A DNA stretch of 64,000 bases from Pseudomonas baltica. GTDB lineage: Bacteria > Pseudomonadota > Gammaproteobacteria > Pseudomonadales > Pseudomonadaceae. Both the position numbers and the translations under genes were made by a program. This document shows, piece after piece, positions 15,861-44,161 of this stretch. The DNA is taken from assembly GCF_031880315.1 (NCBI RefSeq), contig NZ_CP134771.1, positions 2,046,001 through 2,110,000 on the forward strand, written 5' to 3'. The notes under the pieces were generated by a model. It ran no database searches. It saw nothing but the letters and a program-made list of their open reading frames with translations, and was not told where the DNA came from. Position 1 is the stretch's first letter, and the number at the start of each line of letters is the position of its first letter.

Positions 15861-15967
15861 GCTTGAGCAGGCCGAGAGGGGCGTGCGCGATGCGCTCCTC
15901 TACGTACGACCGGTGGCACAGGCAACCATCGAATTTGACGAATTCGAATTTCCGTACAAGGATCACG

Positions 15968-19776: not shown

Positions 19777-22761
19777 CTATCCCACGCTGCCGACATCTTT
19801 CAGGGTGTTGGAGTAGACGAACTCGCCAAGCGCGTTACGCCATCCATCTGGATAATTTTCAAGTGACCGCAGCGCTACTGCCTTAGCATTCACAGGTTGG
19901 ACGGGAGGGGACAGAGCCAGTATCGCATTACCCAGCGCGACATACGCTTTGCGATGCCGTACCCCACCATTAGCCAACAAGACCCCATAACGCGACGGCG
20001 CGCCAAACTTGAGATGCTCGACGAACGCCAGTACCCCTTCGCTCACTTCAATCCCACGTTCGAGCAACAGCCGGGCTAAAAGCGAAATGCCCTGCTCGAC
20101 CAGCGTCTGCAGTGAGTAGGCGACCACGCGAGTATGGATCCCCAGAATGTCATCGACATCCATCTGCATTGATTGGGCGATCTCTGCGAAGGTTGCACCT
20201 CGAACCCATTGTCGAATGATCTCGATGAGCCTTGTCTTTACCTGTTCAGGATCCTGCCCATCATCCAGCCGGAACGCCACCCGCACATCTGACTTGAGTT
20301 CTGTATCCTGCCAAGCCCACTCCAGAATTGCCGAAAGGAGATCATCCGAAGCAGGATCGACAGGGCTCGCCCAATCTGCCCTGCTCGGCAGAAGAACCTG
20401 CTCGACGAACTCCAGAAGGCGCACCTTAGCTCCAGTATCTTGAAGCCAGGCGATCTTACCCTCTGTCCTGAGAGCAATCAGACGCTGGGCTCGCAGCTCA
20501 AAAACCCTACGCAATGTGACAGCGGAACCGGCAGGAAGCTGATGGGCAGCAAACGTATGATCGGACAGGTCAGCAGCTAATCTTAGGAACTCGGCATCTC
20601 CGATTTCTTCCGCAATCAACTCGATAAGCGTTGCGTCTACTCCATCAATGAGCGGGTGACTGGCAGGCTGGATCTCCAAGAACTGATTGTCGAGCGCGAT
20701 AGCATTGGTTCGCAGGAAGGTGTCAAGGCTTTCAATTAAGGTACGCAGCGAGCCTCTGACAGGCTCTCCTGCCCCTGCAGTGGCGACGGGAAGCACTAAC
20801 CCCCACTGATCAGGGTTCGCGCAGATCACCAAGCCCTTGGTATTGGCGCCGGCGCGACCGGCACGACCAACGAGATTCTTGATGTCACGGGCGAGCATGT
20901 TCTCGGGCCGTCCGCTGCCAACCCGACGCTGTACCGAATACAGAACAAGCGAGCGGATCGGCAGGTTTACCCCTTCAGCGAGCGTGCTGGTACAGATCAC
21001 CAGTTGCACTCGCCGATCCCGCAAAAGTTCCTCCAAAACTTCCCGTGTCTCCTGGGGGATATCACCGTGGTGGAGCACTGCCCCGTTGCTCAGCGACTTC
21101 GCACCTATCCAGCCTGTACCAAATTCAGTTTCGAGGTAATCAACACGCGTGCGCAGCGAGTCGAGATCCGCATAGTCAATAGGGTTGGGTAACTGTAATG
21201 GATACTCCAACTGCTTGATGAGTTCTTCAGCCAAACCGATCGCACCCTGATCGCCTCGCTTATTTGCGGCGAATATTGCTGTAGTGCCCATCGACAAGAC
21301 CTTGCGAGCAGCGGCCACAGCCAGGGTCTTGGTTGTTGAGAAGCTATAGGTATTTGTGCGCCGCGTTCGGGCGTTCACGTATTGAAAGGTGTCCCGATCC
21401 AGAAAGCCATGGATCGAGTATTGCCGTTGCTGAGCGTGGGGGTGCATATCAAGACGGACGGACTTGTTCACCCCACTACCAGCGGATCGGAGAACGGAAA
21501 ACTCAGCGATCGCCGGTCGATACGTGCTCCTTATGACTGTGTGCTCCCCACCACCGAGCCAAGCATTGATTTCCTCGATGTTCGGGATGATGGCAGACAT
21601 GAAAACGAAGCGAATCGGGTTGACTTGGCGGGCCTTCATTCGCGCCAATAGCAGCTCCAGGCCAATCCCTCTACCGGAGCTGTCGAGCAGGTGCCCCTCA
21701 TCGCAAATGACCAGCGATATCCGCTGGGCGAACCCTGGGTCAGCGCTCAGGACTCCTGACAGCGACTCAGGGGTCGCGATCAACGCGTTAATGTGATCGA
21801 GCCCATGCACCTCGTCTCCGGACGGTATTGTTCCGCCATACGCGCAGCGCGCCGCGATCCCCAGACTGTTTAGCTGACGCACAAGAGAATGGCGAAGCTC
21901 CGAAGCCAGCGACCGGTACGGCACGATCATGATCGCGACGTGGGTCGGATTGTGCTTCAGATGCCAGTACAGTAACGTCTCGCATAGCGTGGTTTTGCCG
22001 GCCCCTGTGGGCATTTGCAAGGAATAGCTTTCGGCGTTGCCCAGTAGTCCCCTTTCAATAGCCTGAATCTGTGAGGGGAAGAACTCCCAAGTCGATGGCT
22101 TGCGATCGATAAACGAGTTGATCAAAGGTGTCCAAAAAGCGTTCGCCCCTTCGGGCAGCACAGCCCGAATATTCGACTCCTCGAAGCGAGCCAGTAGTCG
22201 GCTGAGCAAAGCCGCTGCTACCCACTTCTGCGGCCCATCCGCTAACGAGCTTCGCGCCTCGATAGCGCTCGCCTCTACGTTGTTGTTAAGACCTATCAGG
22301 TCACCGCTGCGCAGATGCTCCCGCACCTCGATGGCAGTCTGCGATCCCAAGTTGCTCGGGCGGGCCAGGAAGTCATAGCACGCCGCCCATGGGCTTAGTG
22401 CATCAGCGGGCCGAATCGACTGCCGCATGGCCAGACAGGCCGACGCAGGAAAGTCCCCGAAGTAAAACGCCGCAGCCGCAAATAGTGCTGCTTCATCTTT
22501 CGAGATACCCAGCGCCTCAATCTGCTCCGCTGGGGTCTCCTTCGAAAACTGGAGAAAGGCGTTCCCTAGCTGTGCCCAATCGTCACTAGGGATATTTGGG
22601 GAGTGGATTCCGTCGAACAGCTCTCCCACGAGCGAGATGTAGTAGTCGGCAACGCGATTCCCGATCTGGGCAAGTTCAATGGGCAACGCGGCTACGGAAA
22701 ACTGCCCTAAGTGCCGGGCCATGTCTGCGTCGTTGATCCAAGCTTGGAGGGAGGCTCTCAT
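19777..22761 (-). CDS. hamB: Hachiman-like helicase HamB (system 1)
   Basis: 994 aa from ATG 22761. Superfamily 2 helicase: Walker A QMPTGAGKTTL (about 249-259), DEGH box in LVICDEGHLLD, SAIIPN (motif III), and motifs V/VI in STLAEGVNLPIRSLVLYS...NLVGRAGRAG. The long C-terminal part is helical. Its start lies one base after the stop of the HamA-like gene, so the two are translationally coupled. In Hachiman the helicase senses damaged or phage DNA and releases the HamA nuclease. An alternative start at 22791 overlaps HamA by 29 bp. Confidence 0.75.
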   Translation of the reverse strand: MRASLQAWINDADMARHLGQFSVAALPIELAQIGNRVADYYISLVGELFDGIHSPNIPSDDWAQLGNAFLQFSKETPAEQIEALGISKDEAALFAAAAFYFGDFPASACLAMRQSIRPADALSPWAACYDFLARPSNLGSQTAIEVREHLRSGDLIGLNNNVEASAIEARSSLADGPQKWVAAALLSRLLARFEESNIRAVLPEGANAFWTPLINSFIDRKPSTWEFFPSQIQAIERGLLGNAESYSLQMPTGAGKTTLCETLLYWHLKHNPTHVAIMIVPYRSLASELRHSLVRQLNSLGIAARCAYGGTIPSGDEVHGLDHINALIATPESLSGVLSADPGFAQRISLVICDEGHLLDSSGRGIGLELLLARMKARQVNPIRFVFMSAIIPNIEEINAWLGGGEHTVIRSTYRPAIAEFSVLRSAGSGVNKSVRLDMHPHAQQRQYSIHGFLDRDTFQYVNARTRRTNTYSFSTTKTLAVAAARKVLSMGTTAIFAANKRGDQGAIGLAEELIKQLEYPLQLPNPIDYADLDSLRTRVDYLETEFGTGWIGAKSLSNGAVLHHGDIPQETREVLEELLRDRRVQLVICTSTLAEGVNLPIRSLVLYSVQRRVGSGRPENMLARDIKNLVGRAGRAGANTKGLVICANPDQWGLVLPVATAGAGEPVRGSLRTLIESLDTFLRTNAIALDNQFLEIQPASHPLIDGVDATLIELIAEEIGDAEFLRLAADLSDHTFAAHQLPAGSAVTLRRVFELRAQRLIALRTEGKIAWLQDTGAKVRLLEFVEQVLLPSRADWASPVDPASDDLLSAILEWAWQDTELKSDVRVAFRLDDGQDPEQVKTRLIEIIRQWVRGATFAEIAQSMQMDVDDILGIHTRVVAYSLQTLVEQGISLLARLLLERGIEVSEGVLAFVEHLKFGAPSRYGVLLANGGVRHRKAYVALGNAILALSPPVQPVNAKAVALRSLENYPDGWRNALGEFVYSNTLKDVGSVG

Positions 22762-22762
22762 A

Positions 22763-23557
22763 TCAAAGCACCGACTCCCGTGCAGCTGCAAAAGCTGCGT
22801 TGTAGGTAGTGTGCAAATTCGGCACTGAGATCACCACGAGCGTGTACTCGTCACTGGCCGTGGCGGGTACGTTGCCGAGTTCAGCAGCGACAAAGTTCTC
22901 GCAGATGACGGCGACGGCTCTATATCGCAGAGCAGCGGGCGGATGATCAACTGCGTTGATAAACCGGTTTAGAAGCCCAATGTCTACGTCACCGAGATCC
23001 TCTGTGATGGCGCGCTCACGAAGCCACACCAATGTGCTCGCGAGTCGACTGGTGCGATCTTTTGCGCAGTCTGTGATCGCAGAGCCGATCGGGTCTGAAG
23101 GAGCAGCAGTTGACTTGACCTTAACCTCAGCGCAAAGCACCTGATCATTAACACTGGCGAGTGGCCGTTGGGGCATTATGAAGTGAATGACATCGGACTT
23201 GGGGGCCGGTTTGGTTCTATCCTGCTTGAGCCGCCATTTCTTAGGGCCAATGGCGGTGCCTGGATACTCCATGGCGGACTGGTAGAAGTAACCGAGCACC
23301 TCGCCGAAGTCTCCGGCCATGGTTGCACCGGCATCTGGAAGCTTAGTCGCCAAGACGTCTGAAAGCGCCAGCCCATGCTGATCCGCCGCAGCGTGGAGCA
23401 CATCATCGGTGATGTAGCAGCGACGCAATGGCTCGGCCATGGCCGCCTCCAAAAGCGCCACTTGCTGGGCAGTCATCCTGACCAGCACGTACGGTTGCTC
23501 CTGCTCGTGCGGGAACCATGGTACAGCGTCAGCAAAGTCGAAACCGAGATCATCCAT
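22763..23557 (-). CDS. hamA: Hachiman-like nuclease HamA (system 1)
   Basis: 264 aa. A PD-(D/E)XK-type core is visible: E86 in AGDFGEVLGYF, D122 in KSDVIHF, E144-x-K146 in CAEVKVKS. This is the pattern of HamA (DUF1837) effectors, which degrade DNA when released by HamB. First gene of the pair. The second pair in this window has the same residues in the same order (E76, D109, E124-x-K126) and the same gene junction, though the proteins are otherwise very different, so they belong to different subtypes. Confidence 0.7.
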   Translation of the reverse strand: MDDLGFDFADAVPWFPHEQEQPYVLVRMTAQQVALLEAAMAEPLRRCYITDDVLHAAADQHGLALSDVLATKLPDAGATMAGDFGEVLGYFYQSAMEYPGTAIGPKKWRLKQDRTKPAPKSDVIHFIMPQRPLASVNDQVLCAEVKVKSTAAPSDPIGSAITDCAKDRTSRLASTLVWLRERAITEDLGDVDIGLLNRFINAVDHPPAALRYRAVAVICENFVAAELGNVPATASDEYTLVVISVPNLHTTYNAAFAAARESVL

Positions 23558-30759: not shown

Positions 30760-31851
30760 TCACGCAGTCAAGAACTCTTTGAGCAGCGCAGCGCAGCGGA
30801 ATGGCGAGTCAACGATGTCCGTACCTGCCACCCTGTATGAGCGTATCCCAACCGCTGCCAGCTTTTCGTCTACGGCTTTGTCTTTTGCTACCTGGGCAGG
30901 AGTTGTGTGATGAGCTTTGGAGTCACAAAATACTGCGACCCCCTCCTTTTCAAAGAAGAAATCTGCTTCAGTGATTGTCTGCGCCAGTTTCTTCGTGCGA
31001 ACACCACCCTCCCACATCGACTGCAAAGATGGGAAAATCGTTCCATCGGGATAGATATGCATCTGGATTTTTGGGTGCAAACCAATTTGACTCATGGCCT
31101 GCAAAAGGAAAAGCTCAATGGGGGAATCGCACCCCCAAATCTTAAAGGGTTCTGAATCAGTAAATTTCTTGAAATAGTTCTTGCACCTGTACTTTTGGTA
31201 GTCTCCAAGAACTCCTTTGGTCTCGCCCAGCAACTCAGTGCACAGACCAGGATCTGTTGCATCTCTCGGAACATGTTTGGAGGCAACAAAATAGGTATTG
31301 TAAACGAAGCCGATAACATCTGAGCATATGGTTTCGTTGACAGGGACTGCCCCAATAGCATACAGGCCAAAAGCATCCGAGAATGGATTAAACCCCATGT
31401 AGTGTGGCCTGCCGTCCAAAACCTTCTCTAAATCAAAATTTTCGATCCAGTCAATGCCCACTGTCTGTGGCGAACCATTTTTCATAGCTGGACGCAGGGA
31501 AACATGGTAAGGCAGTGCGAATAGCTTACCATCACGTCTTTCGAATGAGTGACAGCAGACGACCACATTAACCATCTGGAATGTGTCACCACGCTTTCTG
31601 TAATAGTCAATGGCCTCTTTCGATGGGTTTACACCGACAACTGGTGCCCCTTCGAAGAACCGCTTCGACAGGTCGAAAATAGCCGTTTCAAGGGGCTGAA
31701 CTCCGTCCAAGTCAAAGATATCATTCGCCAAAAATTTCCCAGCAGCGCTGGCCAAATCAATTTGAAAAGACTCATCAGGCAAATGATTGTAGTTGGGCAG
31801 CGTCCACAATTCTTTTGGCCGATTCTCAATATCACCTTGGATGTTAGGCAC
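30760..31851 (-). CDS. Predicted DUF559/Vsr-like endonuclease with large N-terminal domain
   Basis: 363 aa. The C-terminal 120 residues look like a PD-(D/E)XK nuclease of the DUF559/Vsr type: CDSPIELFLLQAM, FPSLQS, EADFFFEKEGVAVFCDSKAHH, then KDKAVDEKLAAVGIRSYRVAG. The first 240 residues are unrecognised and may be a sensor. Single-gene transcription unit, convergent with 29746-30594. A likely stand-alone defence or DNA-repair nuclease, inferred from domain and context. Confidence 0.7.
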   Translation of the reverse strand: MPNIQGDIENRPKELWTLPNYNHLPDESFQIDLASAAGKFLANDIFDLDGVQPLETAIFDLSKRFFEGAPVVGVNPSKEAIDYYRKRGDTFQMVNVVVCCHSFERRDGKLFALPYHVSLRPAMKNGSPQTVGIDWIENFDLEKVLDGRPHYMGFNPFSDAFGLYAIGAVPVNETICSDVIGFVYNTYFVASKHVPRDATDPGLCTELLGETKGVLGDYQKYRCKNYFKKFTDSEPFKIWGCDSPIELFLLQAMSQIGLHPKIQMHIYPDGTIFPSLQSMWEGGVRTKKLAQTITEADFFFEKEGVAVFCDSKAHHTTPAQVAKDKAVDEKLAAVGIRSYRVAGTDIVDSPFRCAALLKEFLTA

Positions 31852-32096
31852 GTGAGCTCCGAATTATAATAACCAAGCTAGCCGAGTATCATGAGCATGA
31901 AGGCTCGCGACTTATACATAGCCAGAAACATTAAACCCAATCGAAATAGAAATATACAACACCTTTACACACTATCCACAACCAGCGCCACCTGATATAT
32001 TTGAAAGTTTTTGGTTGACCCCTTCAGGTGATAGCGCTTGGCATAGATACAAAAATCATAAAAGCGGGGCGAATTTGCATCACCCCTACTAACTCG

Positions 32097-33224
32097 TTAT
32101 TTCAGTGCAATCAGAATATCAAGGTCTTCAGATATCACTTTGAGCTTATTATAATCATCTGCACCTTTCTCCGACCTAGCCAATGCTTTAGCGGTGCATC
32201 TACGGCCTGTTTCGAGCAAATCGGCAATGTAGACGTTATTCCGTAGTTTTTGCACACCTGTTGGACTACTAAATATTTCCATCAACTGAGCATAAAGGGG
32301 TTCTAGGTAGCCGAAATGTTCAGTTTCGATTCCACAGAGATCAAAATAAATTCGCTCCAACATTTCCAAGCCGGGCAAAGGCTTCAAAACCTTAACAATC
32401 TCTGGATATTCTTCTCGCCCCAAAAAATATTTCATCAGAGAGTCATTTGCAGATCGCCCCATCGGAAAAATCAGCCTCTCCGCTTTATCATTCCCGGTGT
32501 AAAACATGAACGAATCGTAAATAGCTGTGGCAACCATAACAAATTCGTCAGCTCCATAGATATTTAATGGCGTTCTTTGCCCTTTAAATTCAAGATCTCC
32601 CTCTGCGACCTCGTTTACCATACGAAGATCTAAGGCTTCACTCAGGTTGATGAGCTTTCCCACAAGCCACCTACCATCATCCTTGCCGCTAGGGCTTTTT
32701 GCATAGTTTCTTAACACGGACAAATGAAGATTCAATGCACCGAGATAATTTTGGGAGCCTGGATCTGTCACAACCTCAGCTTTAAACTCCAAATTGGTCG
32801 GAGTATTTTTCGGGAAGACTTTGTTATACAGAGCGTCTCTATTTTCAAATACAAATGTATTACCGAACATCGATTGCAGCTCATTTAATCGTTCCATGAA
32901 GAAGCGTCGATGATTGACATATTGCTCAAAATTCATCGCCGCAAGCTGCGCGTTAGTGACCCTTTGCTGCTCAATATTTGTCTTCTGGATCTGCTTGTTC
33001 TGATGAGCTAGGAAGAGAAGCGTGGCCACAGTAGCTCCCGTAGAGGCCACCATGAAGAAGCCACTCAACAACGACCCGAAGCTTGACCAAGCTGCGTGCT
33101 CATGTGAAATCGGCCCGAGGTTGATGCCATAGAGCGTAAACAGCACGATCCCGAAGCCGACCACACCAACCCCAATCGTCAACCAGGCACCCCAGATCCA
33201 CCACCTGCCTTCGCTCTTGGCCAC
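32097..33224 (-). CDS. Hypothetical membrane protein with two N-terminal TM helices
   Basis: 375 aa. TM helices at about 9-33 (IWGAWLTIGVGVVGFGIVLFTLYGI) and 45-73 (AWSSFGSLLSGFFMVASTGATVATLLFLA), followed by a coiled coil (QNKQIQKTNIEQQRVTNAQLAAM) and a 280-aa cytoplasmic domain. AT-rich compared with its neighbours. This topology (2TM plus cytoplasmic sensor) occurs in membrane-depolarising defence effectors, but I recognise no family. Confidence 0.65.
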   Translation of the reverse strand: MAKSEGRWWIWGAWLTIGVGVVGFGIVLFTLYGINLGPISHEHAAWSSFGSLLSGFFMVASTGATVATLLFLAHQNKQIQKTNIEQQRVTNAQLAAMNFEQYVNHRRFFMERLNELQSMFGNTFVFENRDALYNKVFPKNTPTNLEFKAEVVTDPGSQNYLGALNLHLSVLRNYAKSPSGKDDGRWLVGKLINLSEALDLRMVNEVAEGDLEFKGQRTPLNIYGADEFVMVATAIYDSFMFYTGNDKAERLIFPMGRSANDSLMKYFLGREEYPEIVKVLKPLPGLEMLERIYFDLCGIETEHFGYLEPLYAQLMEIFSSPTGVQKLRNNVYIADLLETGRRCTAKALARSEKGADDYNKLKVISEDLDILIALK

Positions 33225-33591: not shown

Positions 33592-34278
33592 TTAGCGAAT
33601 CAAGAGGTTCGTCAGCAGTTGCAAGTGCTCATCATCATCCAGAGAAATCGCAACCGACCCCGATCGTGATAGCTCGATCTGCACAGGCGTTGAGTCGTAC
33701 GTGTAGACGATTTTGATCTTGTCGATAGGCGCCGCGCGCCCACCTGTGATCTCCAGCAATTTCGTCATCGCATTACCCGTAGAGGTAATATCCACTCGGT
33801 AGCTGCTTTCGATATCAAACGTCACAGCTCCGGACACGATGCGCTTGGCCATGACCCTTGTAAGCCGCTTGTCAGCCTTCAGTTGCTGGTAGACCCACGA
33901 AATGTCTGGCTTCACGACCTCCAGCGCGAATGTTGTCCCGGCTGCCGCCCGGATGAGCTCCACGAACGGCTTCAGATCCTTGGGCGGCGAACTCATGCAG
34001 ATTGAATAACGATCAACCCCCAGCGATTCGAAGACCATGTCAAAGCTGATGAACGTCGAGTAACTCGACTCGAACGTCTCACCTAGAGGATTCGTAAACG
34101 ACTGGGTGATATCCCGTTGCTCGTGATACCGAAAGGTTGCCTTGCCATCCAGGACTTCAAGAACCTCGACACCGATCCGACTCTCGTCGTTGAACGGCTG
34201 CTGTCGAAGGCCATGAACAAGGGTCTGAAATTCAATGCGAGCGGTCAGAACCCACAGTTTCAGCCGCTTTGACTTCAT
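33592..34278 (-). CDS. Third gene of an unrecognised three-gene module
   Basis: 228 aa, MKSKRLKLWVLTARIEFQTLVHGLRQQPFNDESRIGVEVLEVLDGKATFRY.... Beta-rich first half, no catalytic motif seen. Its ATG overlaps the stop of the interrupted upstream gene (ATGA at 34275-34278), so the three genes form one operon. With an IS now between its promoter and itself, expression is probably lost or reduced. Confidence 0.62.
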   Translation of the reverse strand: MKSKRLKLWVLTARIEFQTLVHGLRQQPFNDESRIGVEVLEVLDGKATFRYHEQRDITQSFTNPLGETFESSYSTFISFDMVFESLGVDRYSICMSSPPKDLKPFVELIRAAAGTTFALEVVKPDISWVYQQLKADKRLTRVMAKRIVSGAVTFDIESSYRVDITSTGNAMTKLLEITGGRAAPIDKIKIVYTYDSTPVQIELSRSGSVAISLDDDEHLQLLTNLLIR

Positions 34279-34463
34279 GCCAATAAACTCCTTTCGATAT
34301 CATCCAGTGTCTTCTGCGCTGCTTCCTCCAAGCGGATTTTGAGCTTCTGCTCAAACACCGGCTCGGCACGCACCAGATTCTTGGCGTATTCCCCCGGTGT
34401 CAGGGTAGTTGTCGTGTCCCCTGCTTTTTAAAAAAGCATTCCGGGGGCGGCAAGAGTATCGTC

Positions 34464-34964
34464 ATGCCTTTCTACTCAGAAGAACGCAAAGCTGCACTGC
34501 TGAAAATGATGTTGCCACCTTTGAGCCTATCGGCGTCGGAGGTTGCGCGCCGCGAAGGTTGCAGCGATATGTCTCTCCATAATTGGCGCAAGCAAGCTGC
34601 TTCCAAAGGAACGCAATTGTCCGACACCAAGCAACCCTCCGAGAGTTGGTCAGCTGAATCCAAGATGGCGATCATCATGGAAACAGCCGCCCTGTCGGAA
34701 CTGGAAATGGGTGAATACTGCCGACGTAAAGGCATTTACCCTGAGCAGATCACCGACTGGCGCAATGCGTTTATTGCCAGCAGCACGAAGCGGTCAACTG
34801 CTAAAAACGTGAGTTCCGGGCAGTCACGGGATGATAAGAATCGTATCCGTGAGCTTGAGCGCGAACTGCGCCGCAAGGATGCCGCATTGGCTGAGACAGC
34901 GGCATTGCTAGTGCTGCGAAAAAAGCTCAACGCCTACTGGGGAAGCGACGACGAGGGCACCTGA
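34464..34964 (+). CDS. IS3-family transposase OrfA
   Basis: 166 aa. HTH segments ERKAALLKMMLPPLSLSASEVARREGCSDMSLHNWRKQA and a second HTH, then a leucine-zipper-like coiled coil (RIRELERELRRKDAALAETAALLVL). A slippery A6G (34919-34925) near the end is the expected -1 frameshift site to produce the OrfAB transposase. Confidence 0.85.
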   Translation: MPFYSEERKAALLKMMLPPLSLSASEVARREGCSDMSLHNWRKQAASKGTQLSDTKQPSESWSAESKMAIIMETAALSELEMGEYCRRKGIYPEQITDWRNAFIASSTKRSTAKNVSSGQSRDDKNRIRELERELRRKDAALAETAALLVLRKKLNAYWGSDDEGT

Positions 34965-34966
34965 CC

Positions 34967-36016
34967 TTGTTGCCAGAACGGCATTTACTCGTTGGTTGGC
35001 TCAATGAAGCCATCAGTGCGGGCGCCCGCAGGGCGCCTGCTTGTCTGGAAGTTGGCATTTCGCTTCGCACGCTACAACGCTGGAGTTTGCCCGAAGAAAT
35101 GCTTGCCGATGGACGTACCACGACAGTCAGGCCGACGCCCATAAACGCACTTAGTGAGTTTGAGCGTCAGGCTATCCTGGCGCTGTGCAACAGTAAGTCA
35201 TACGCGCATCTGCCTCCGAGCCAGATCGTGCCACAGCTGGCTGATGAGGGCCGTTACATAGCGTCTGAAGCGACTTTTTATCGTGTGTTGCATGCCGCAG
35301 GTCAGCAGCATCATCGCTCGCGCGCCAAGCGCCCGCATCGTCATGAGGCACCTACCACCTATGCGGCGAAAGCCGCTAATCAGGTGTGGTCGTGGGACAT
35401 CACCTACCTGCCGTCACCGGTTCGAGGGAAGTTTTACTACCTCTATTTGATCGAGGATATCTACAGCCGCAAGGCTGTGGGTTGGGAAGTTTACGAAGCA
35501 GAAAGTGGTGAAAAGGCTGCTGCGTTACTGCAACGAAGCGTGACTCAGGAGAAGTGCTGGCACCAGCCGCTGGTACTTCACTCGGATAACGGTGCGCCGA
35601 TGAAATCGGTGACGCTGCTGACCAAGATGTACGACCTGGGTATCACGCCCTCTCGTGGCCGACCGCGTGTCAGTAACGACAACCCTTACTCGGAGTCACT
35701 GTTCAGGACGCTGAAATACTGCCCGCAGTGGCCGCAAGATGGATTTAGCAGTCTGGATGATGCGCGTATCTGGGTGCGGGATTTTATGGTCTGGTACAAC
35801 ACCGCGCATCGCCATAGCCAAATCCGCTTCGTGACACCGGCCCAACGTCACGAGGGGAAAGACCGGGAGATCCTGGCTCGGCGCGACGCGGTCTATGAGC
35901 AGGCTAAAGAAAAAAGACCGGAACGATGGACGGGCGAAACACGCAACTGGAACCCGATAGGGACAGTGTATCTGAATCCTGAAAGGGAGCTGACTGTGGT
36001 GGTTAAGGTCGCGTAG
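34967..36016 (+). CDS. IS3-family transposase OrfB (rve integrase core)
   Basis: 349 aa, -1 frame relative to OrfA. DDE residues in VWSWDITYLPSP, LVLHSDNGAPM and NPYSESLFRTLKY, followed by the typical NTAHRHSQIRFVTPAQRH ending. Expected to be made as an OrfAB fusion by frameshifting. Confidence 0.88.
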   Translation: MLPERHLLVGWLNEAISAGARRAPACLEVGISLRTLQRWSLPEEMLADGRTTTVRPTPINALSEFERQAILALCNSKSYAHLPPSQIVPQLADEGRYIASEATFYRVLHAAGQQHHRSRAKRPHRHEAPTTYAAKAANQVWSWDITYLPSPVRGKFYYLYLIEDIYSRKAVGWEVYEAESGEKAAALLQRSVTQEKCWHQPLVLHSDNGAPMKSVTLLTKMYDLGITPSRGRPRVSNDNPYSESLFRTLKYCPQWPQDGFSSLDDARIWVRDFMVWYNTAHRHSQIRFVTPAQRHEGKDREILARRDAVYEQAKEKRPERWTGETRNWNPIGTVYLNPERELTVVVKVA

Positions 36017-37113
36017 CAAGACGGTGGACGCGACAACTACCTTGAAAAACGCCGTATTTCCCATTGTTGTAGTTGTAGACCCCTCTCACGATGTATGAGA
36101 AATCGCAGTACCTGGACTGGTTACCAAACTGAGCCTCGAACTGAACGATCTCTGAACCTACGAGCTTCTCGCGAGCAGTCCACCGAATTTTCCACAGGTA
36201 AAAACCGTGCCCCTCAAGCTCCATCAGCTGCTTGGACTCCAAGACACCTTTGCCCTTCAGTGATGCCTTGTCGATGCGGATGATCTTGTGAACCCTGGCT
36301 TCTGGCTGCAGCCTCGCCAGCTCGGTTTCCGGATCGCCACCCTCGCCCTCATCGTCTGAGTCAAACTCAACCGCATCCTCGATCACCAACGCCTCATCGC
36401 TGAGATCTAGGTCATCATCTTCTCGATCTTTAGGGTTGAATGTGGAGACGTCGACGACATCGACCACCTCCATGCCCTTGAGGTTGCGGATCAAACTGCG
36501 AAGGAAATTCGTCCTGATGCCGGCATCCGGAATTGCCTCCAGAGAGATGGTTCGGGTCGCCACGTCTTTGTCAGTGACTATCTCGATCTGGGAATACAGC
36601 TGATCGGTGATGTCCTTGAATTTTTCGTTCATGGGCCCAGTGATTTTCCAGCCGTTGCCCTGCTTCTCAAGGATTACCTCCGCTGTCTTCTCGACGACTT
36701 GGCGGAACTCCGCCTGGCTCAGATCAAGCTTCTGGTATTTGACGGTGAGCTTGAGCTGATCCCCATGGATAGCTACTTCAGCCTGCTCGTGCTGATCATC
36801 CACAAGCCACTCCTTGACGGAGGTCAGAGCGTCGGTCAGCTGATCTTTTGTAACCGCCGTGGTGACGACCACATTCGTAGTTTTCTCACGACTGTCACGG
36901 CCACCTACCAAGAGAGAAAGATTCCGATAATCGTAGTAATCATGGAACAGGGCACTGAACCGATTGGCCAGGAATTTTTTGTCTGACTCATTGGAGATCA
37001 CGATCCCCCTGGAGAGGAAGACCTTCCGTAGCTCAGCGCTCGTAAGGCTTCGCTGCGTGAGCGCGTCAAAGATCGCTTTGTCGGACGCGAAGTATAGGCT
37101 CCCCATTCTCATG

Positions 37114-38172
37114 TCAGTCTCGCTCCCAGCCGATCGCTTCGGGCTTATAGTTCGGAATCGCGTGATTCATAATGTCTAGTTCGATTGCCTGCAATTTCCG
37201 CTTGCGATTCTCGTCTTCGCCCCACTCAGTGACGTAGCTGTTGATGGCAGCGTTGAAGTTGCTGAGGATGCTGCTGTGATGGTAGCGATTGGCAACCCTG
37301 ATACGGATCTTCAAGTCTTTGTTGGCATTGAGGATTTGGAACCTGGACAGGGCGTCAAAGAGGTACCTGAATTCGATCTCACTGCTGCCATCGCGGCGAT
37401 AGTAGATCAGGTAGCCTTCGCCATACGCTTCTGTCGGCTTCATGGCCTTTTCGCAGTACGAGATCACCTCTTTGTGGTGGATGATCATGTACGGCGAAGC
37501 GATGAGCTCAGCGGTGGCCGCGCGCTCCCAGTATTCGCCACTGGCCTTATGCAGAACGAGGTCAGGATAATAGAAGGTGTAGTTGTCCTTCGGAAATGTC
37601 CCTGCCGCTCTGAGGGCATTCACATCGACCTGCAGCGTCTTCAGGTAATTGATCAGTGAAGGTTCGACGATATGAATCTGCTGAGAATCCTTGATGTGCA
37701 GGTTCTCGCCCTTGTAGTCCTTGAAGTGATCGTAGAAATTCTTGTCGTACTCGTCGTCGTGGTTGTACACGAACAGCATCCCACGAACCTCATACCTCTC
37801 CCGCTTAGCCAAGTGATAGCGCGTCTGCCACTCCGTCGAGGCACGGGCACAGTCGATTGTCTTGCCCAAGGATTTCAAGGCCTTCTTGATCGAGTCCAGC
37901 GTGATTGAGCCCACCGCGTAGCTCTTCAAATCGGTATGAAGGTAGACGGCTTTATTCAGATAAGGGTCTGCGTACTTGAACACCACGTCAGTCGGATGCG
38001 TGTGTTCAGACTTCTTAGAGGGCGCGTGCGTTTCCTTCTTCACACAGGCGAAGTTGAGGTTCGCCGGCCCCTCTTTCTTCCAGCGAAAGAAGCTGAATAT
38101 CTCGCTGGAAACGAGCTCCGCGAGTCTTGCAATTTTTTCCGTTTCGCCGCCTGACATGGTCGTTCCTGTCAC
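37114..38172 (-). CDS. First gene of an unrecognised three-gene module, PD-(D/E)XK-like
   Basis: 352 aa. E24 (LVSSEIFSFF), D62 (HPTDVVFKYAD) and D81-L-K83 (YLHTDLKSYA) follow the order and spacing of a PD-(D/E)XK nuclease core. The rest contains Tyr-rich stretches (YEVRGMLFVYNHDDEYDKNFYDHFKDYKGE) and no other known motif. Heads the operon 38172 to 33592. I propose it is the nuclease effector of a three-component system. A second start at residue 6 is possible. Confidence 0.65.
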   Translation of the reverse strand: MTGTTMSGGETEKIARLAELVSSEIFSFFRWKKEGPANLNFACVKKETHAPSKKSEHTHPTDVVFKYADPYLNKAVYLHTDLKSYAVGSITLDSIKKALKSLGKTIDCARASTEWQTRYHLAKRERYEVRGMLFVYNHDDEYDKNFYDHFKDYKGENLHIKDSQQIHIVEPSLINYLKTLQVDVNALRAAGTFPKDNYTFYYPDLVLHKASGEYWERAATAELIASPYMIIHHKEVISYCEKAMKPTEAYGEGYLIYYRRDGSSEIEFRYLFDALSRFQILNANKDLKIRIRVANRYHHSSILSNFNAAINSYVTEWGEDENRKRKLQAIELDIMNHAIPNYKPEAIGWERD

Positions 38173-38666: not shown

Positions 38667-40121
38667 ATGCGTAACCCGACGATTGCAAAAGATCTGAGCC
38701 CCCCAGCCCCTCGTCGGCAGAAGGGTCAAAAGCAGCCAGGCCCCGGCGGCAGCATGCAAGCGATGAATAGCCTCACGCTAGTCAAGGGCGAGCCTCCCAG
38801 GCTTTACGAGACAGCTACAGGCATACCGTTGGATTTCTACAACGAGTTCACCGAGCACCTCTGGGACGAGATCGGCATCAGCTACGCGCGTAACTCGGTC
38901 ATCACCTTGGAGAGGGGTGGGCGCGCGCTTGCCGAATTTCTCTATGAGACCGGTGCCCTTTCTGGCCGACTTGACCCTGCTACTGCATCGAAAACCATGC
39001 AGCTTTTTCCATCCTATCTCATCGATGGGGCGGACGCCAAAGACCCGATTGTCCGCAAGGCATTCATTCGAACAGGCCGAAAAACGATCTCCCCCAAGTC
39101 TGCGGGCCCATACATCGCAGGCGCCAATCTGATGCTGAGAGTCTGCAGCGCAATCACGTTCGAACAGGCAGAAATGTCCGCCGTCCTAACGGGTCAAGCG
39201 CCTCTAGAGCAAGTGAATGAGTTGCCGGAACTCAGTCCCCGGGTGCGCAGCCCTCAGGAATTGGCTCAGATCCACGCCAACACCCTGCAGGTCAAACCCT
39301 CTCTTGGCAAAGATGCAAAGAAAACCCAAGGAGGCCTGCGCACGCCCAAGAACAAGAAAAAGCGGGAGGCCAAACATATCGGCATCCCTCACATTCTGCC
39401 GATGCTTGAAAACGCCCCGACTCGGCTGGACGGCCTGATCTGGTGCTTTGGACTCGGGAGTTTGAGGGTATCGGAAGCGATGGGGATTCGCCTGGAGGAC
39501 ATAGACGTCCACAAGAGGATCATCCGCGTCGAAGACCCTCAAGGCTTGCGTGACACGACCAACAAGGAAAGCTTCGGCTTCAAGGGCCGCAAGACAGCTG
39601 TTGTGACTATGTTCGAGCCGTTCCAGTCGATATTTTGGGAAAAGCTGGCTGAGTACATGGCTGTGCGCCCTTCTTCTGACAGCCCTTGGCTGCTGCTGTC
39701 GTTGGATGAAGATACTTACGGGGTACCTCTCTGCGAACTCAATGCCAACAGCGTCAACAGGGCGGTCAATCGCAGCATCCAAGCCACGCAGAAGAAACTG
39801 AAGTTCGTAGCGCCTCAAGGAAACTACTCGTCCCACCAATTCCGCCACCTGTACGGCGTGTGGGCACGTAACTATGTGGTGGTGCCAGGCCGACCTAAAC
39901 CTGGCCTCGACCTGCCTGAGATCCAGTTGTTGATGGGCCATGCTGACCTCAAAAGCACTGAGATCTATGCCGCCGACTTGGGTATTTACACCCTTGTGGA
40001 GGTAGATGCTGCAAATGAACTCATCTACCACCGGGGCGCCGGGGAAAGCATTGATTACTACCGTGGCCAAGCCTATGCGCGCCTAAGCGAGCAACTGCTG
40101 CAGCAGGGCCCAGAAGCGTGA
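38667..40121 (+). CDS. Tyrosine recombinase (GmtY-like)
   Basis: 484 aa. Catalytic boxes: LGSLRVSEAMGI (Arg), SSHQFRHLYGVW (His-x-x-Arg-His), LLMGHADLKSTEIYA (His and Tyr nucleophile). The N-terminal 200 residues are a DNA-binding arm. It is the first gene of a co-directional recombination operon at the right end of the island; the next gene starts inside its stop codon (GTGA). The size and order match the recombinase GmtY of gamma-mobile-trio islands (inference). It should integrate and excise the island at tRNA-Gly together with the 732-aa recombinase. Confidence 0.82.
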   Translation: MRNPTIAKDLSPPAPRRQKGQKQPGPGGSMQAMNSLTLVKGEPPRLYETATGIPLDFYNEFTEHLWDEIGISYARNSVITLERGGRALAEFLYETGALSGRLDPATASKTMQLFPSYLIDGADAKDPIVRKAFIRTGRKTISPKSAGPYIAGANLMLRVCSAITFEQAEMSAVLTGQAPLEQVNELPELSPRVRSPQELAQIHANTLQVKPSLGKDAKKTQGGLRTPKNKKKREAKHIGIPHILPMLENAPTRLDGLIWCFGLGSLRVSEAMGIRLEDIDVHKRIIRVEDPQGLRDTTNKESFGFKGRKTAVVTMFEPFQSIFWEKLAEYMAVRPSSDSPWLLLSLDEDTYGVPLCELNANSVNRAVNRSIQATQKKLKFVAPQGNYSSHQFRHLYGVWARNYVVVPGRPKPGLDLPEIQLLMGHADLKSTEIYAADLGIYTLVEVDAANELIYHRGAGESIDYYRGQAYARLSEQLLQQGPEA

Positions 40122-41275
40122 TCAACACCACCGACAACCTTACCGTGCACGGCGACGATGTCCTGCAAAGCGCTCAAGCCATCTTGCAAGAGTTGGCTCA
40201 GAAAGCTATGGAAGCCGAGAATGTCGCGGGGAAAGCAAATCCAGAGCTTCTGAGGGATATGCAGGCCAGACACCGTCTGGCCTTATCCATCTTCTTGCGG
40301 CATCGGAAAGGTCGGGCCCTGACCTACCAAGAGCTCACTAACCTCTACAGCCTATGCCTCGTACCCGACAAACAGCTCGATCTCGCCATGCCCCTTTATG
40401 AGGAGCTCACGGGCGAGTACACGCCAAAGCTGAAAGATGTGAGCAGACTTCGCATCCCTATCCGGGCGATGTTCGTACTCTTGTGGGCGAAGGGACACGT
40501 CACGCTCCCCCATAGCTTCAACCTGAGTGGCATATGGGCCAAGTACCCAGAAATGATAGGCATGTCCGAGGGTTTCATTCACCAGATCGCTGGACTCAAC
40601 GCATCGCATCAGCAGCGCTGCGCTCGCACTTTCCAGTACCGTGTGAACTGGAAAAAGCCTGAAAATATAGTATTTGAAGAGCTGTGGGAGGCAGCGCCTG
40701 CAGTTGTAGACAAACAGCGTGAAATAAAGAGCAAGGCAACAAAGGGCAGTAAAGGTTTGGATTTTTCCTACCTAGCTTGGCTTCACCTGTTCGCCAAACA
40801 ATATCCATCGATTGTAAGCCCTGATCAGGCGCGTCTACTTGAGGGGTATCACGCGCATCTAAGCACGACCAGGATCGAGAAATCGAGTACCGAAATCAAA
40901 AAGTCCTATGCGGAGTTCGCAATGCACTGGGGTTCGATCGACCCCAGCCAGTCAAAAAGCGAAAACCTAAAATGGAGAAGATCCCGTTATGCCGCCGGCC
41001 TTGATGGCCGCAAGAGGAAGAACAAACAAAAAATTGAGGATAAAATCGCCCGAGAAGACGCCCAAAACTGGGAAGCACAGAGCGTACTTTCCCCTGAGGA
41101 GTATGCAGCTCTGCCTGGCCGCAGGCGGCCTACAAAGGGCGACTATGAATGGGTCGAGAGTTACTACAATACCCCAGAGAATCCTCACATTGAGGACAAC
41201 TTAGCCTCTTGGGTAAGAGCTGGGCAACTGCATCTTGAGCATATCGAAGAGCACCAGCCCAAAAGCAGGGCGTAG
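40118..41275 (+). CDS. Unrecognised protein of the recombination operon
   Basis: 385 aa from a GTG that overlaps the upstream stop (GTGA). Helical and basic, with no catalytic Arg-His-Tyr set. SKSENLKWRRSRYAAGLDGRKRKNKQKIEDKIAREDAQNW in the second half is strongly basic and could bind DNA. Encoded between two tyrosine recombinases and translationally coupled to the first, so it is probably an accessory factor for recombination. Confidence 0.65.
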   Translation: MINTTDNLTVHGDDVLQSAQAILQELAQKAMEAENVAGKANPELLRDMQARHRLALSIFLRHRKGRALTYQELTNLYSLCLVPDKQLDLAMPLYEELTGEYTPKLKDVSRLRIPIRAMFVLLWAKGHVTLPHSFNLSGIWAKYPEMIGMSEGFIHQIAGLNASHQQRCARTFQYRVNWKKPENIVFEELWEAAPAVVDKQREIKSKATKGSKGLDFSYLAWLHLFAKQYPSIVSPDQARLLEGYHAHLSTTRIEKSSTEIKKSYAEFAMHWGSIDPSQSKSENLKWRRSRYAAGLDGRKRKNKQKIEDKIAREDAQNWEAQSVLSPEEYAALPGRRRPTKGDYEWVESYYNTPENPHIEDNLASWVRAGQLHLEHIEEHQPKSRA

Positions 41276-41299
41276 GAAGTTGGCTACATTCACATCCTG

Positions 41300-43498
41300 A
41301 TGGACTACTTGGGCAGGTATTTGCCCGCTTGGCTGAGAAAACACCCGGACAGCGGCGTTGAATTCCCGACTAACATCGAGGAATTCCACCGATCCATATT
41401 TTGGCATCGCACAAAAAAATACACCAAGATCAAAAACCTCAAGGATAGCTCGCACCTCGACCTGCCTCTCACACTGATGCAGTTCTACGATCTTAAACGC
41501 AGTATCAAAACAAAGTCGCATTTCATTTTTTCGGTATGGCGGTTCTTTGAGGTCGCGATAGCGAAAAGTAAAGAATTGCTGCCAGATGGCAGAGCACTGG
41601 TCAGTAGCCCCTACACAAATCCGGTTCATCCAAAACTGGACTCACCTGGAAGTGGCCCAGCGGGGAAAAGTGACAAAATCCCCTTGCCCATCGGCTCCAT
41701 GATTATGGTCGAGGCATACATGCTGGCACTCGATGCGATTGGGGTTGAACTTCAAAACAAGTTCCTGACAGGCTTACTGAGCTTCCAAGACTCTCTGGAT
41801 CTGAAAAACAGCGTTTGGATTGATCTTGAAAAATACGGAGTTTCATACTCCCTCAAGCTGTGGAACCCCGACGACATCTCTGAAACCTTGGAGGTGCCTC
41901 TCAAAAAAATCATCAACGCTTATTCGTGGAAAAGTGAGAATTATAAATACGCTGGCCGTGAAATTTACGTCCCATGGCTATCACAGTTGAGAATGCTCAC
42001 CACAGCCATGTTTTCTGGGCTACGGCTTCAAAACTGCCAATGGCTGGATGTTCGCAGCTTTGACAAATATTATGATGCATCTCTGCGGGGTAGCCTTAGC
42101 AGCTGCATTCTCTACGTCAACACCGATAAAAGCGGCAATAGCCGCCCCGTGTCGCTCCCTTACAAGGTTATGGACGTACTGCTCCAAGAGCGCCACTTTC
42201 AGACTAAGCAGTACGGCAAAAGATACAAAGGTGTCTATTACGAAAACGATATCAGCAATGCGAAGAAGTACGGAAAAATCCAACCTCTCTTCCGGAGCCC
42301 ATGGCTCGATAGCGGCTTGCCGTTTTCTGATCCCTCTTACGCAGCTAAGTGGACGTTGATTCTTCGTGGCTTTCAAGAAATGTACAACAGTTTCGTGCCA
42401 CCTGAAAGTCGCCATCAATTCGTGGAACAGACGGCCAGTGGAGATTGGTCGACAGTACATACACCCCATGCGCTGCGTGCAACTTGGATTACCCACCGCC
42501 GTATTTATGCATTTCTCGATTACGCCATCATCGGAGGGCAAGTAGGCCATGCCCATCGGTACACATCCGCGCATTACGTAGTGCCGACGCGACAAGAAAC
42601 GCTCACCCTAGTTGAATCTGCCAACAAAGCAGTGTCTGCGCATGCATTTGCTGCTCTGACTGGCAGACCTCCCAGCCCGTCATCGCCAGAATCAGCGCTG
42701 GTCAAAGGCTGGCAAAAGCACCGCAAAGATACAGTGCGCGAACAGCACCTGATTTCCGTACTTCCAGGTATTCTGGACATCGAGGAGACGGGTCTGGACT
42801 TGATTGCTAGCACCAAAACTCAGCGCGTAAAATTTCTGGACAATTGCATTTGTGCGTTAGACGGTGATTGCCCTAAAAAATTGATGAATTTTACAAGAAA
42901 AGCTCGCACGTGTGGTATCTGCCCTTATGCAATATTCGGCATCGATCACCTACCCGGTCTGAACGCGAAAGTTCGCGACCTAGTCAACCGCGTTGATCAT
43001 CTTAAACCAAGGCTTCAGCAATTACATAAACATCAACCACACTCGTCCAATACCGAGATAGTCTACGACGAGCTTTCGGTGAGCGCGTTGGAACTGGCCG
43101 GATACCGTCAAGTCGTACAGATTCTTGAGAAAAACTGGCGGGAAGAGAAGTTTCCGAAAGGGTACATCACTCGTCATCGCGACCTTGCTAATGCTGTACG
43201 TCACAGCGTTGATATGGACGACCCGAAACAGCGCGTTCTCTCCATGCTGTTAGACATGTCCCAGTTTCCTGCCTTGGCGTCAGAGCATTACCCGCTAATC
43301 CTTGAAGAGATGGCACGTAACCCCGAGTTATTGATAGTTGTCAACCAACCAGTAGACGAAAGAGAGCGCTACATTGGTCAAATTCTTTCAATTATGAATG
43401 GCGCCGGTCTTTCATTCGGGGATATTGCTGCGTACGCCCTGAGCAAACCTTCTGCCCTCTCACCCAAAGACCAAGCTTCGATGGCGATGGTGCACTGA
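41300..43498 (+). CDS. Large tyrosine recombinase (GmtZ/VPA1269-like)
   Basis: 732 aa. Catalytic boxes: MFSGLRLQNCQWLDV (Arg), NTDKSGNSRPVSLPY (Lys), HTPHALRATWITHR (His-x-x-Arg), GGQVGHAHRYTSAHYVV (His, Tyr). After the catalytic domain there is a cysteine cluster (CICALDGDCP, CGICPY; about residues 515-550), probably zinc-binding, and a helical tail. The large size and the Cys cluster recall the GmtZ/VPA1269 family. Starts 24 bp after the upstream gene. Confidence 0.75.
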   Translation: MDYLGRYLPAWLRKHPDSGVEFPTNIEEFHRSIFWHRTKKYTKIKNLKDSSHLDLPLTLMQFYDLKRSIKTKSHFIFSVWRFFEVAIAKSKELLPDGRALVSSPYTNPVHPKLDSPGSGPAGKSDKIPLPIGSMIMVEAYMLALDAIGVELQNKFLTGLLSFQDSLDLKNSVWIDLEKYGVSYSLKLWNPDDISETLEVPLKKIINAYSWKSENYKYAGREIYVPWLSQLRMLTTAMFSGLRLQNCQWLDVRSFDKYYDASLRGSLSSCILYVNTDKSGNSRPVSLPYKVMDVLLQERHFQTKQYGKRYKGVYYENDISNAKKYGKIQPLFRSPWLDSGLPFSDPSYAAKWTLILRGFQEMYNSFVPPESRHQFVEQTASGDWSTVHTPHALRATWITHRRIYAFLDYAIIGGQVGHAHRYTSAHYVVPTRQETLTLVESANKAVSAHAFAALTGRPPSPSSPESALVKGWQKHRKDTVREQHLISVLPGILDIEETGLDLIASTKTQRVKFLDNCICALDGDCPKKLMNFTRKARTCGICPYAIFGIDHLPGLNAKVRDLVNRVDHLKPRLQQLHKHQPHSSNTEIVYDELSVSALELAGYRQVVQILEKNWREEKFPKGYITRHRDLANAVRHSVDMDDPKQRVLSMLLDMSQFPALASEHYPLILEEMARNPELLIVVNQPVDERERYIGQILSIMNGAGLSFGDIAAYALSKPSALSPKDQASMAMVH

Positions 43499-43537
43499 GA
43501 TGGCCAAGCGAGCTCGTGAGACTGGGCCGAACCGACC

Positions 43538-44161
43538 ATGACAAAGATACCCACCAAAGCAGTGCGAAGAGGAGCGCCTGAAACAGTGAAGGCGCGACGC
43601 GGCGCCGCGCAACTCAATGCGACGATTGCTCGAATCAATGCTGCCTTGGAGGTGCTTCAGGAGAGTGGTGACCCCTTCAAAAATATCAGCCAGTTAGCAA
43701 AGGAAGTAGCCCGCATTTGCGGCATAGATCGCAGCTTGCTGTTAAAGCGTGGGAAGACATACAGGCAGTGTTTGGAGCGCTATCCGGCATTGCTGGGCGA
43801 TGGGAGCAGCGCTCCTACCCCGTACAAGATCGATATCGATCCAATGCATCCGGTCATGATTCGAACTGCGCAGTTGGAGGAGGAGAACGCCAAGCTTCGC
43901 AACATCGTAGACGACCTGTCGAAACGGACTGTCAGGGCTGCACCGTCTTACGGGGTTGCCGCCAAGGCCAGCGTACCTGAGTACCAACGCAAATACGAAG
44001 TGACCTGTCAGCTCGTAGACAGAATCCTCGATCACAAGCCAGCCATTCAGATCGTCGACGACACCCTGACCGACTTCTCGGATGTCAGCGGGATTCCGAA
44101 GCCAGTTGCGGATTCCAAGCTCATCGCCCCCTACCTCAAATGGAAAAATACCCGTGCTTAA
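43538..44161 (+). CDS. Small HTH/coiled-coil protein (GmtX-like)
   Basis: 207 aa. N-terminal helical DNA-binding region (FKNISQLAKEVARICGIDRSLLLKRGKTYRQCLERYPALL), then a coiled coil (RTAQLEEENAKLRNIVDDLSKR). Similar in layout to the third protein of mobile trios. Its end overlaps the start of the next gene. Confidence 0.6.
   Translation: MTKIPTKAVRRGAPETVKARRGAAQLNATIARINAALEVLQESGDPFKNISQLAKEVARICGIDRSLLLKRGKTYRQCLERYPALLGDGSSAPTPYKIDIDPMHPVMIRTAQLEEENAKLRNIVDDLSKRTVRAAPSYGVAAKASVPEYQRKYEVTCQLVDRILDHKPAIQIVDDTLTDFSDVSGIPKPVADSKLIAPYLKWKNTRA

What the first reader, a model, noticed from the sequence alone, without database searches (positions are those of the whole stretch)
33592..38172. 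Unrecognised three-gene operon with a PD-(D/E)XK-like first protein, split by an IS
Seen: three tightly coupled genes (TGA-N-ATG and ATGA junctions), the first with E24...D62...D81-x-K83, the second with a winged-helix-like start and a long acidic linker, the third unknown. None resembles a system I can name. The IS cuts the second gene 40 codons before its end. This is the best candidate in the window for an undescribed system.
Basis: partly seen in the sequence, partly recalled or inferred. Interest (0 to 1): 0.75.

Follow-up and report, generated by a model that had tools for sequence, protein, structure and literature searches.

The report
IS-broken 3HP anti-phage defence operon
This is a damaged copy of a known but mechanistically unexplained three-gene bacterial anti-virus system called 3HP; its first protein looks like a DNA-cutting enzyme and the other two are predicted to fold like DNA-gripping proteins, which makes the system's mechanism testable.

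Summary
In detail: three tightly coupled minus-strand genes, the second cut by an IS3-family element (34391-36054, 4-bp target duplication, about 36 codons before its end). The 'unrecognised system' reading does not. The genes are Hp1-Hp2-Hp3 of Rst_3HP; a three-gene system of this kind from P2-like phages was reported to protect E. coli against P1. PADLOC matches: Hp1 E=1e-66, Hp2 E=3.4e-38; gene 3 is Hp3 (E=1.8e-28 with 41 Hp3s outside its clade). All three genes stand in order in 11 of 11 genome-contig loci, 10 of 10 fetched phage/plasmid records and 71 of 80 viral contigs; the other nine loci end within 280 bases of Hp1 or at/inside Hp2. Proposed: an Hp2-Hp3 DNA clamp licenses the Hp1 nuclease. 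This copy is probably inactive.

The parts
37114..38157 (-). Gene 1 = Hp1 (347 aa from ATG 38157; the ORF also opens at GTG 38172), PD-(D/E)XK-like nuclease, intact
   Evidence: PADLOC Hp1 E=1e-66 over 8-351; E10/D62/D81/K83 (numbered from the GTG) invariant in 40 of 40; profile homologue of GapS4a. The ATG start is inferred from alignment to distant members.
36055..37112 (-). Gene 2 = Hp2, 5' part (352 codons), interrupted by the IS; the open frame runs on to 36003 with IS-derived residues
   Evidence: PADLOC Hp2 E=3.4e-38 (query 36042-37112); uninterrupted in L007-L017
34275..34390 (-). Gene 2 = Hp2, 3' remnant: last ~36 codons (predicted C-terminal helix) and stop
   Evidence: tblastn to the end of Hp2 in relatives, 87-95% identity; helix 365-391 in the model of the L007 Hp2
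34391..36054 (+). IS3-family insertion sequence (orfA 34464-34964, orfB 34967-36016), antisense to the operon; TSD TATT at 34387-34390 and 36055-36058
   Evidence: NCBIfam transpos_IS3 E=1.2e-54 for orfB; two further identical copies in the genome; borders from flank comparison; inverted repeats near the ends
33592..34278 (-). Gene 3 = Hp3 (228 aa), predicted tandem TBP-like / RdgC-like fold, intact
38667..44161 (+). Neighbouring recombinase module (484, 385, 732, 207 aa), gamma-mobile-trio-like; context, not part of the system
   Evidence: NCBIfam GmtY E=4e-5 for the first and GmtZ E=9e-9 for the third gene, both far below cut-off; no match for the second and fourth; homologous module beside 3HP in 6 of 11 Pseudomonas loci

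Best explanation
The feature is an Rst_3HP anti-phage operon (Hp1-Hp2-Hp3) in a Pseudomonas defence island, probably inactivated by an IS in Hp2. Shown: identity, gene order, conservation, catalytic residues, homology of Hp1 and Hp2 to GapS4a and GapS4b. Predicted: the folds of Hp2 and Hp3. Inferred mechanism: Hp2 (N-terminal helical domain plus two TBP-like repeats) and Hp3 (two TBP-like repeats) form an RdgC- or CENP-N:CENP-L-like heterodimeric clamp on DNA, which recognises a feature of incoming phage DNA (an end, a replication intermediate or a circularising genome such as P1). The clamp then positions or licenses the Hp1 PD-(D/E)XK nuclease to cut that DNA. In GAPS4, which has no Hp3 in the loci seen, GapS4b would do the clamp's job alone, as a homodimer.
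Confidence: 0.55

Rival explanations
1. Abortive-infection reading: Hp2 and Hp3 are sensor and inhibitor that hold the Hp1 nuclease silent; infection releases it and it degrades host DNA, killing the cell. Same parts, opposite logic.
Against: The RnlA resemblance covers one common domain only; the best long matches are DNA-binding RdgC and Iml3. I saw no data on cell fate for 3HP.
Confidence: 0.3
2. An undescribed system.
For: No Pfam family at E<=1 for any of the three proteins; no credible solved relative by sequence.
Against: PADLOC Hp1 and Hp2, Hp3 profile, depositors' Rst_3HP notes.
Confidence: 0.02
3. The trio serves the life cycle of its mobile elements (integration, replication or satellite-phage functions) rather than host defence.
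For: It sits beside homologous recombinases in 6 of 11 Pseudomonas loci and on P2-like, filamentous and other phage genomes.
Against: It also occurs on plasmids and beside other integrases; in 5 of 11 Pseudomonas loci no homologue of the module was found in the stored stretch (L015 holds only 1.85 kb upstream); a three-gene system from the P2 hotspot was reported to protect against P1.
Confidence: 0.06
4. The copy in this window is still active: the truncated Hp2 lacks only its last helix, and Hp3 is still made.
For: Hp1 and Hp3 are intact; a viral contig (L051) has another IS at the same place in Hp2, which might hint that this end is dispensable. E376 and A379 of the helix are over 90% conserved in the 11-sequence alignment but not listed as such in the 42-sequence one.
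Against: The C-terminal helix is predicted with high confidence (block means 88-95) as the last element of the second TBP-like repeat; the IS also separates Hp3 from the upstream genes. Of 18 same-genus genomes with Hp1, 16 have Hp2 in one full-length frame.
Confidence: 0.15

Closest known systems
Rst_3HP (Hp1-Hp2-Hp3; Rousset et al. 2022, PMC9122126, abstract and passages seen)
   Same: Same three genes, order, strand, similar lengths and tight junctions; each protein homologous to its counterpart
   Different: The window copy belongs to a chromosomal Pseudomonas clade (Hp1 38% identical to the E. coli/Klebsiella P2-phage one), its Hp3 escapes the PADLOC Hp3 model, and its Hp2 is broken by an IS
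GAPS4 (GapS4a-GapS4b, gamma-mobile-trio islands; the system is recalled, sequences)
   Same: Hp1 is homologous to GapS4a and Hp2 to GapS4b by profile comparison; same gene order; GMT-like recombinases nearby in the window
   Different: No third gene of the Hp3 kind in 4 of 4 distinct GAPS4 loci; Hp1 matches no GapS4a model and Hp2 stays far below the GapS4b cut-off
RdgC (E. coli recombination-associated DNA-ring protein; PDB 2owl, 2owy)
   Different: No sequence-profile relation; Pfam RdgC not hit; RdgC is a single-gene homodimer without a nuclease partner (recalled)
CENP-N/Chl4 and CENP-L/Iml3 of the inner kinetochore
   Different: Eukaryotic, no nuclease partner known to me, no credible sequence similarity, low TM-scores for Hp2 (about 0.2)
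Hachiman (HamAB), present in the same window at 19777-23557
   Same: Another defence operon of the island; HamA is a PD-(D/E)XK-type protein (recalled)
   Different: Different genes, with a helicase partner

Membership tests
Rst_3HP | Hp1 present | tested here: met
   PADLOC PDLC03004 E=1e-66, 8-351 of 352; profile of 38 sequences outside the closest clade E=2.2e-121
Rst_3HP | Hp2 present | tested here: met
   PADLOC PDLC03005 E=3.4e-38 on the 5' piece; profile of 40 sequences outside the clade E=2.3e-92
Rst_3HP | Hp3 present | tested here: met
   PADLOC PDLC03006 does not hit the window's own protein but hits 8 of 12 aligned members; profile of 41 Hp3s outside the clade hits it at E=1.8e-28, the only hit among 432 ORFs
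Rst_3HP | Three genes adjacent, same strand, in order | tested here: met
   elsewhere 95 of 106 loci with an Hp1 hit show all three on one strand. The 11 others: L002 (the window's own, Hp3 beyond the stretch), L006 (half an Hp1 only) and 9 viral loci that end at or inside Hp1 or Hp2 or within 280 bases
Rst_3HP | All three genes intact | tested here: not met
   Hp2 interrupted by an IS at 34391-36054; the copy is a disrupted member
Rst_3HP | Protects against phage P1 | not testable with these tools
   reported for the E. coli phage system (passage)
PD-(D/E)XK nuclease superfamily (Hp1) | D...(D/E)xK motif with an upstream acid, conserved | tested here: met
   E10, D62, D81, K83 in 40 of 40
PD-(D/E)XK nuclease superfamily (Hp1) | PD-(D/E)XK core fold | not tested
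GAPS4 | GapS4a and GapS4b models matched over curated cut-offs | tested here: not met
   No NCBIfam or Pfam match for Hp1 at E<=1; Hp2 reaches GapS4b only at E 0.0077, 15 of 300 bits, best of 11 relatives 6.8e-6
GAPS4 | Homology of both proteins, same order | tested here: met
   with controls
RdgC family (Hp3, Hp2) | Match to the RdgC sequence family | tested here: not met
   no Pfam hit at E<=1; hhalign prob 0.2 and 2.0 against 19 RdgC sequences
RdgC family (Hp3, Hp2) | RdgC-like fold | tested here: met
CENP-L / CENP-N | CLN-HD fold and heterodimer | tested here: inconclusive

The most novel reading that the evidence does not exclude
Hp2-Hp3 is a bacterial and phage-borne counterpart of the CENP-N:CENP-L (Chl4:Iml3) heterodimer: an asymmetric TBP-like DNA clamp with a helical N-terminal reader domain, here coupled to a nuclease for anti-phage defence. 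GAPS4 would be its simpler, single-clamp-protein sister, and the inner-kinetochore DNA clamp and RdgC would share ancestry with defence clamps.
Probability: 0.15. Interest if true: 0.85.

Novelty: new member of a known kind. Interest (0 to 1): 0.5.

Why it matters
3HP was reported as three genes with no clear predicted domain (passage), and I saw no mechanism for it: the name Rst_3HP occurs once in each of four papers of the library (listing), of which I read one passage. Uniting it with GAPS4 and giving each protein a testable role (nuclease plus an RdgC-like DNA clamp of two proteins) turns an anonymous entry in defence catalogues into a concrete biochemical hypothesis. It also suggests that RdgC-like folds, known from recombination and, in eukaryotes, from kinetochores, are used in phage defence.

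Tried and rejected
Curated scans gave no family at E<=1 for the window's Hp1 or Hp3 and only a weak GapS4b hit for Hp2; scans of their relatives gave only scattered single-member hits (best 0.0084 for Hp1 relatives in Pfam; 0.065 for Hp3 relatives in NCBIfam). Sequence search of the PDB with the three alignments gave nothing credible. A first RdgC profile contained wrong ORFs and was dropped; the clean repeat with 19 RdgC proteins is negative, so RdgC kinship is claimed for the fold only. The PDB fold lists also hold many single-domain or unrelated beta-rich matches (KA1, RnlA, phosphomannomutase and others); I read them as the common beta-alpha-beta4-alpha arrangement or noise. tblastn of the window's Hp3 finds nothing in the phage collection at E<=1e-5. 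The class sample found Hp1 only in the window's own genome (1 of 369), the genus sample in 18 of 298 and the relatives sample in 5 of 95, own genome included each time. Considered and set aside: an R-M system (no methylase or specificity subunit within the trio, though 4 of 10 fetched records have a methyltransferase a few kb away) and Hachiman (separate genes in this window). Paper searches for the GAPS4 link and for an RdgC/CENP link in defence (listings) showed no such statement, but the library lacks most subscription papers and the GMT/GAPS paper I looked for was not held. More GAPS4 loci were sought and few were found, so 'no Hp3 in GAPS4' rests on 4 distinct loci.

Full report
What is there. 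On the minus strand lie gene 1 (37114-38157, also open from GTG 38172), gene 2 (from 37112) and gene 3 (33592-34278), joined by TGA-C-ATG and ATGA junctions. An IS3-family element (orfB over the curated cut-off) interrupts gene 2. The genome (one contig of 6.63 Mb) holds three identical copies of the element; comparing their flanks gives borders 34391-36054 and a 4-bp duplication TATT in this copy. Five uninterrupted relatives align to the two flanks and meet there. Gene 2 loses its last ~36 codons (compare L007). Gene 1, the 5' part of gene 2 and gene 3 show dN/dS of 0.03-0.11 against four relatives (L007, L009, L014, L016).

What it is. PADLOC names gene 1 Hp1 (E=1e-66) and gene 2 Hp2 (E=3.4e-38); gene 3 has no hit of its own. 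However, 8 of 12 members of the alignment of gene 3 with third genes from elsewhere match PADLOC Hp3, and a profile of 41 Hp3 proteins outside the window's clade finds gene 3 at E=1.8e-28 as the only hit among 432 window ORFs. A Vibrio phage record carries the depositors' notes Rst_3HP__Hp1, Hp2, Hp3 on the homologous trio. In a Klebsiella P2-like phage and an E. coli phage-like plasmid the trio lies between the portal and the replication endonuclease. Rousset et al. [quoted passage not shown] DefenseFinder's paper lists Rst_3HP among systems mostly on prophages (PMC9090908, passage). That the DefenseFinder and PADLOC labels refer to exactly this published system is my reading of the names plus the hotspot position; that gpQ is the portal and gpA the endonuclease is recalled.

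Distribution. Three genes in order on one strand: 11 of 11 loci from genome contigs, 10 of 10 fetched phage and plasmid records (fetched: 10 of the 29 records that matched), 71 of 80 viral contigs (the best 80 of 91; redundant). In the nine viral exceptions the stored locus ends inside or at the end of Hp1 or Hp2 (L084 154 bases after Hp1 with a partial Hp2, L077 280 bases after Hp1 with no Hp2 seen). Of all 106 loci with an Hp1 hit, 95 show all three. Hp1 is in 18 of 298 same-genus genomes sampled, own included; of these 18, 16 have Hp2 in one full-length frame, the window's is cut by the IS, and L136 has Hp2 in two frames. The fetched records include filamentous Pseudomonas phages, a P2-like phage, a Vibrio phage and plasmids of Vibrio, E. 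coli, Aliarcobacter, Pseudomonas, Azospirillum and Enterobacter. Of 5,426 complete E. coli genomes 18 hold a close copy, 17 of them over at least 80% of the query.

Context. The operon diverges from a four-gene recombinase module (38667-44161) with weak, sub-cut-off matches to gamma-mobile-trio GmtY (first gene) and GmtZ (third gene) and none for the other two; homologues of the module stand beside 3HP in 6 of 11 Pseudomonas loci (L007-L011, L013). The window also holds HamA with a helicase (Hachiman-like, 19777-23557) and a PRTase-CE protein, so this looks like a defence island. A C-terminal GapS4b fragment lies at 2111294-2111506 of the genome, 1.3 kb beyond the window, with no GapS4a hit in the genome.

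Hp1. In 40 of 40 sequences E10, D62, D81 and K83 (numbering from the GTG) are invariant (E5, D57, D76, K78 in the alignment numbered from the ATG). This is the PD-(D/E)XK signature; the fold itself was not modelled.

Link to GAPS4. The weak GapS4b hit (best 6.8e-6 and 3 of 11 relatives) led to GapS4a and GapS4b families collected. For the profiles I aligned 32 of the 120 listed GapS4a proteins (169 found) and 27 of the 59 GapS4b proteins. hhalign gives Hp1-GapS4a prob 97.4, E=1.1e-11 over 228 columns and Hp2-GapS4b prob 96.0, E=4.5e-9 over 335 columns. Unrelated pairings: Hp2-GapS4a 0.3, Hp1-GapS4b 1.2, Hp3-GapS4b 0.2 (the last 0.3 with the sides swapped), Hp3-GapS4a 3.4 and Hp3-Hp1 0.2. A caveat: the Hp1-GapS4a alignment sets the first aspartate on D56 of GapS4a but not the D-x-K motif on GapS4a's invariant S-V-K, which has no acid at that place. 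Four distinct GAPS4 loci (L111/L116, L113, L114, L115) have both genes and no Hp3 match at E<=1. So 3HP and GAPS4 are related nuclease systems, distinguished by Hp3 in what I saw. I found no statement of this in the searches named under Tried and rejected.

Mechanism. Shown: conserved trio, conserved nuclease signature, GAPS4 homology. Predicted: the folds. Inferred: Hp2 and Hp3 pair into a clamp around or across DNA and license Hp1 to cut. What the clamp recognises is not shown. The main rival with the same parts is abortive infection by a released nuclease.

Verdict. The value lies in the mechanistic hypothesis and the union with GAPS4.

Noticed in passing
L051:8036-9272 (IMG/VR contig) compared with window 34391-36054: A second, different IS (two ORFs that look IS3-like by eye, not scanned) interrupts Hp2 at the same aligned place near its C-terminus, also antisense to the operon; a 98.5-98.6% identical relative (L049) is uninterrupted. 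Both insertions seen fall at one site; chance or target preference is not settled, and the searches favour loci with an intact Hp1.
   Followed up: partly
G000:C1:2111294-2111506, 1.3 kb beyond the right end of the window (L112): A C-terminal fragment of GapS4b (profile positions 285-355, E=1.8e-12) without a GapS4a hit in the genome: remnant of a GAPS4-like system in the same region.
   Followed up: partly
window 19777-23557: HamA (Pfam HamA E=1.3e-8, over cut-off) with a DEAD-box helicase: Hachiman-like operon.
   Followed up: no
window 15863-17230: PRTase-CE protein with its associated wHTH domain (Pfam over cut-off).
   Followed up: no
window 30760-33224: A protein with a weak MTES_1575-like REase match (below cut-off) and a membrane-like protein (by eye); both are 96-98% identical next to 3HP in L007.
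   Followed up: partly
window 59429-63394: A 1321-aa protein with DUF4365 and TPR matches and a weak PIN-TPR-GreABC match, beside an SMC-like ATPase gene (56275-59151).
   Followed up: no
L018, L020 (Pseudomonas phages 99-2 and 54-4): Filamentous phages of about 13 kb carry the complete 3HP trio near one end of the deposited record.
   Followed up: no
L136 (a genome of the same genus): Hp2 is split into two overlapping frames, another apparent lesion in Hp2.
   Followed up: no
window 38667-44161: Recombinase module resembling the gamma-mobile-trio, but far below all curated cut-offs: possibly a diverged sister family.
   Followed up: partly
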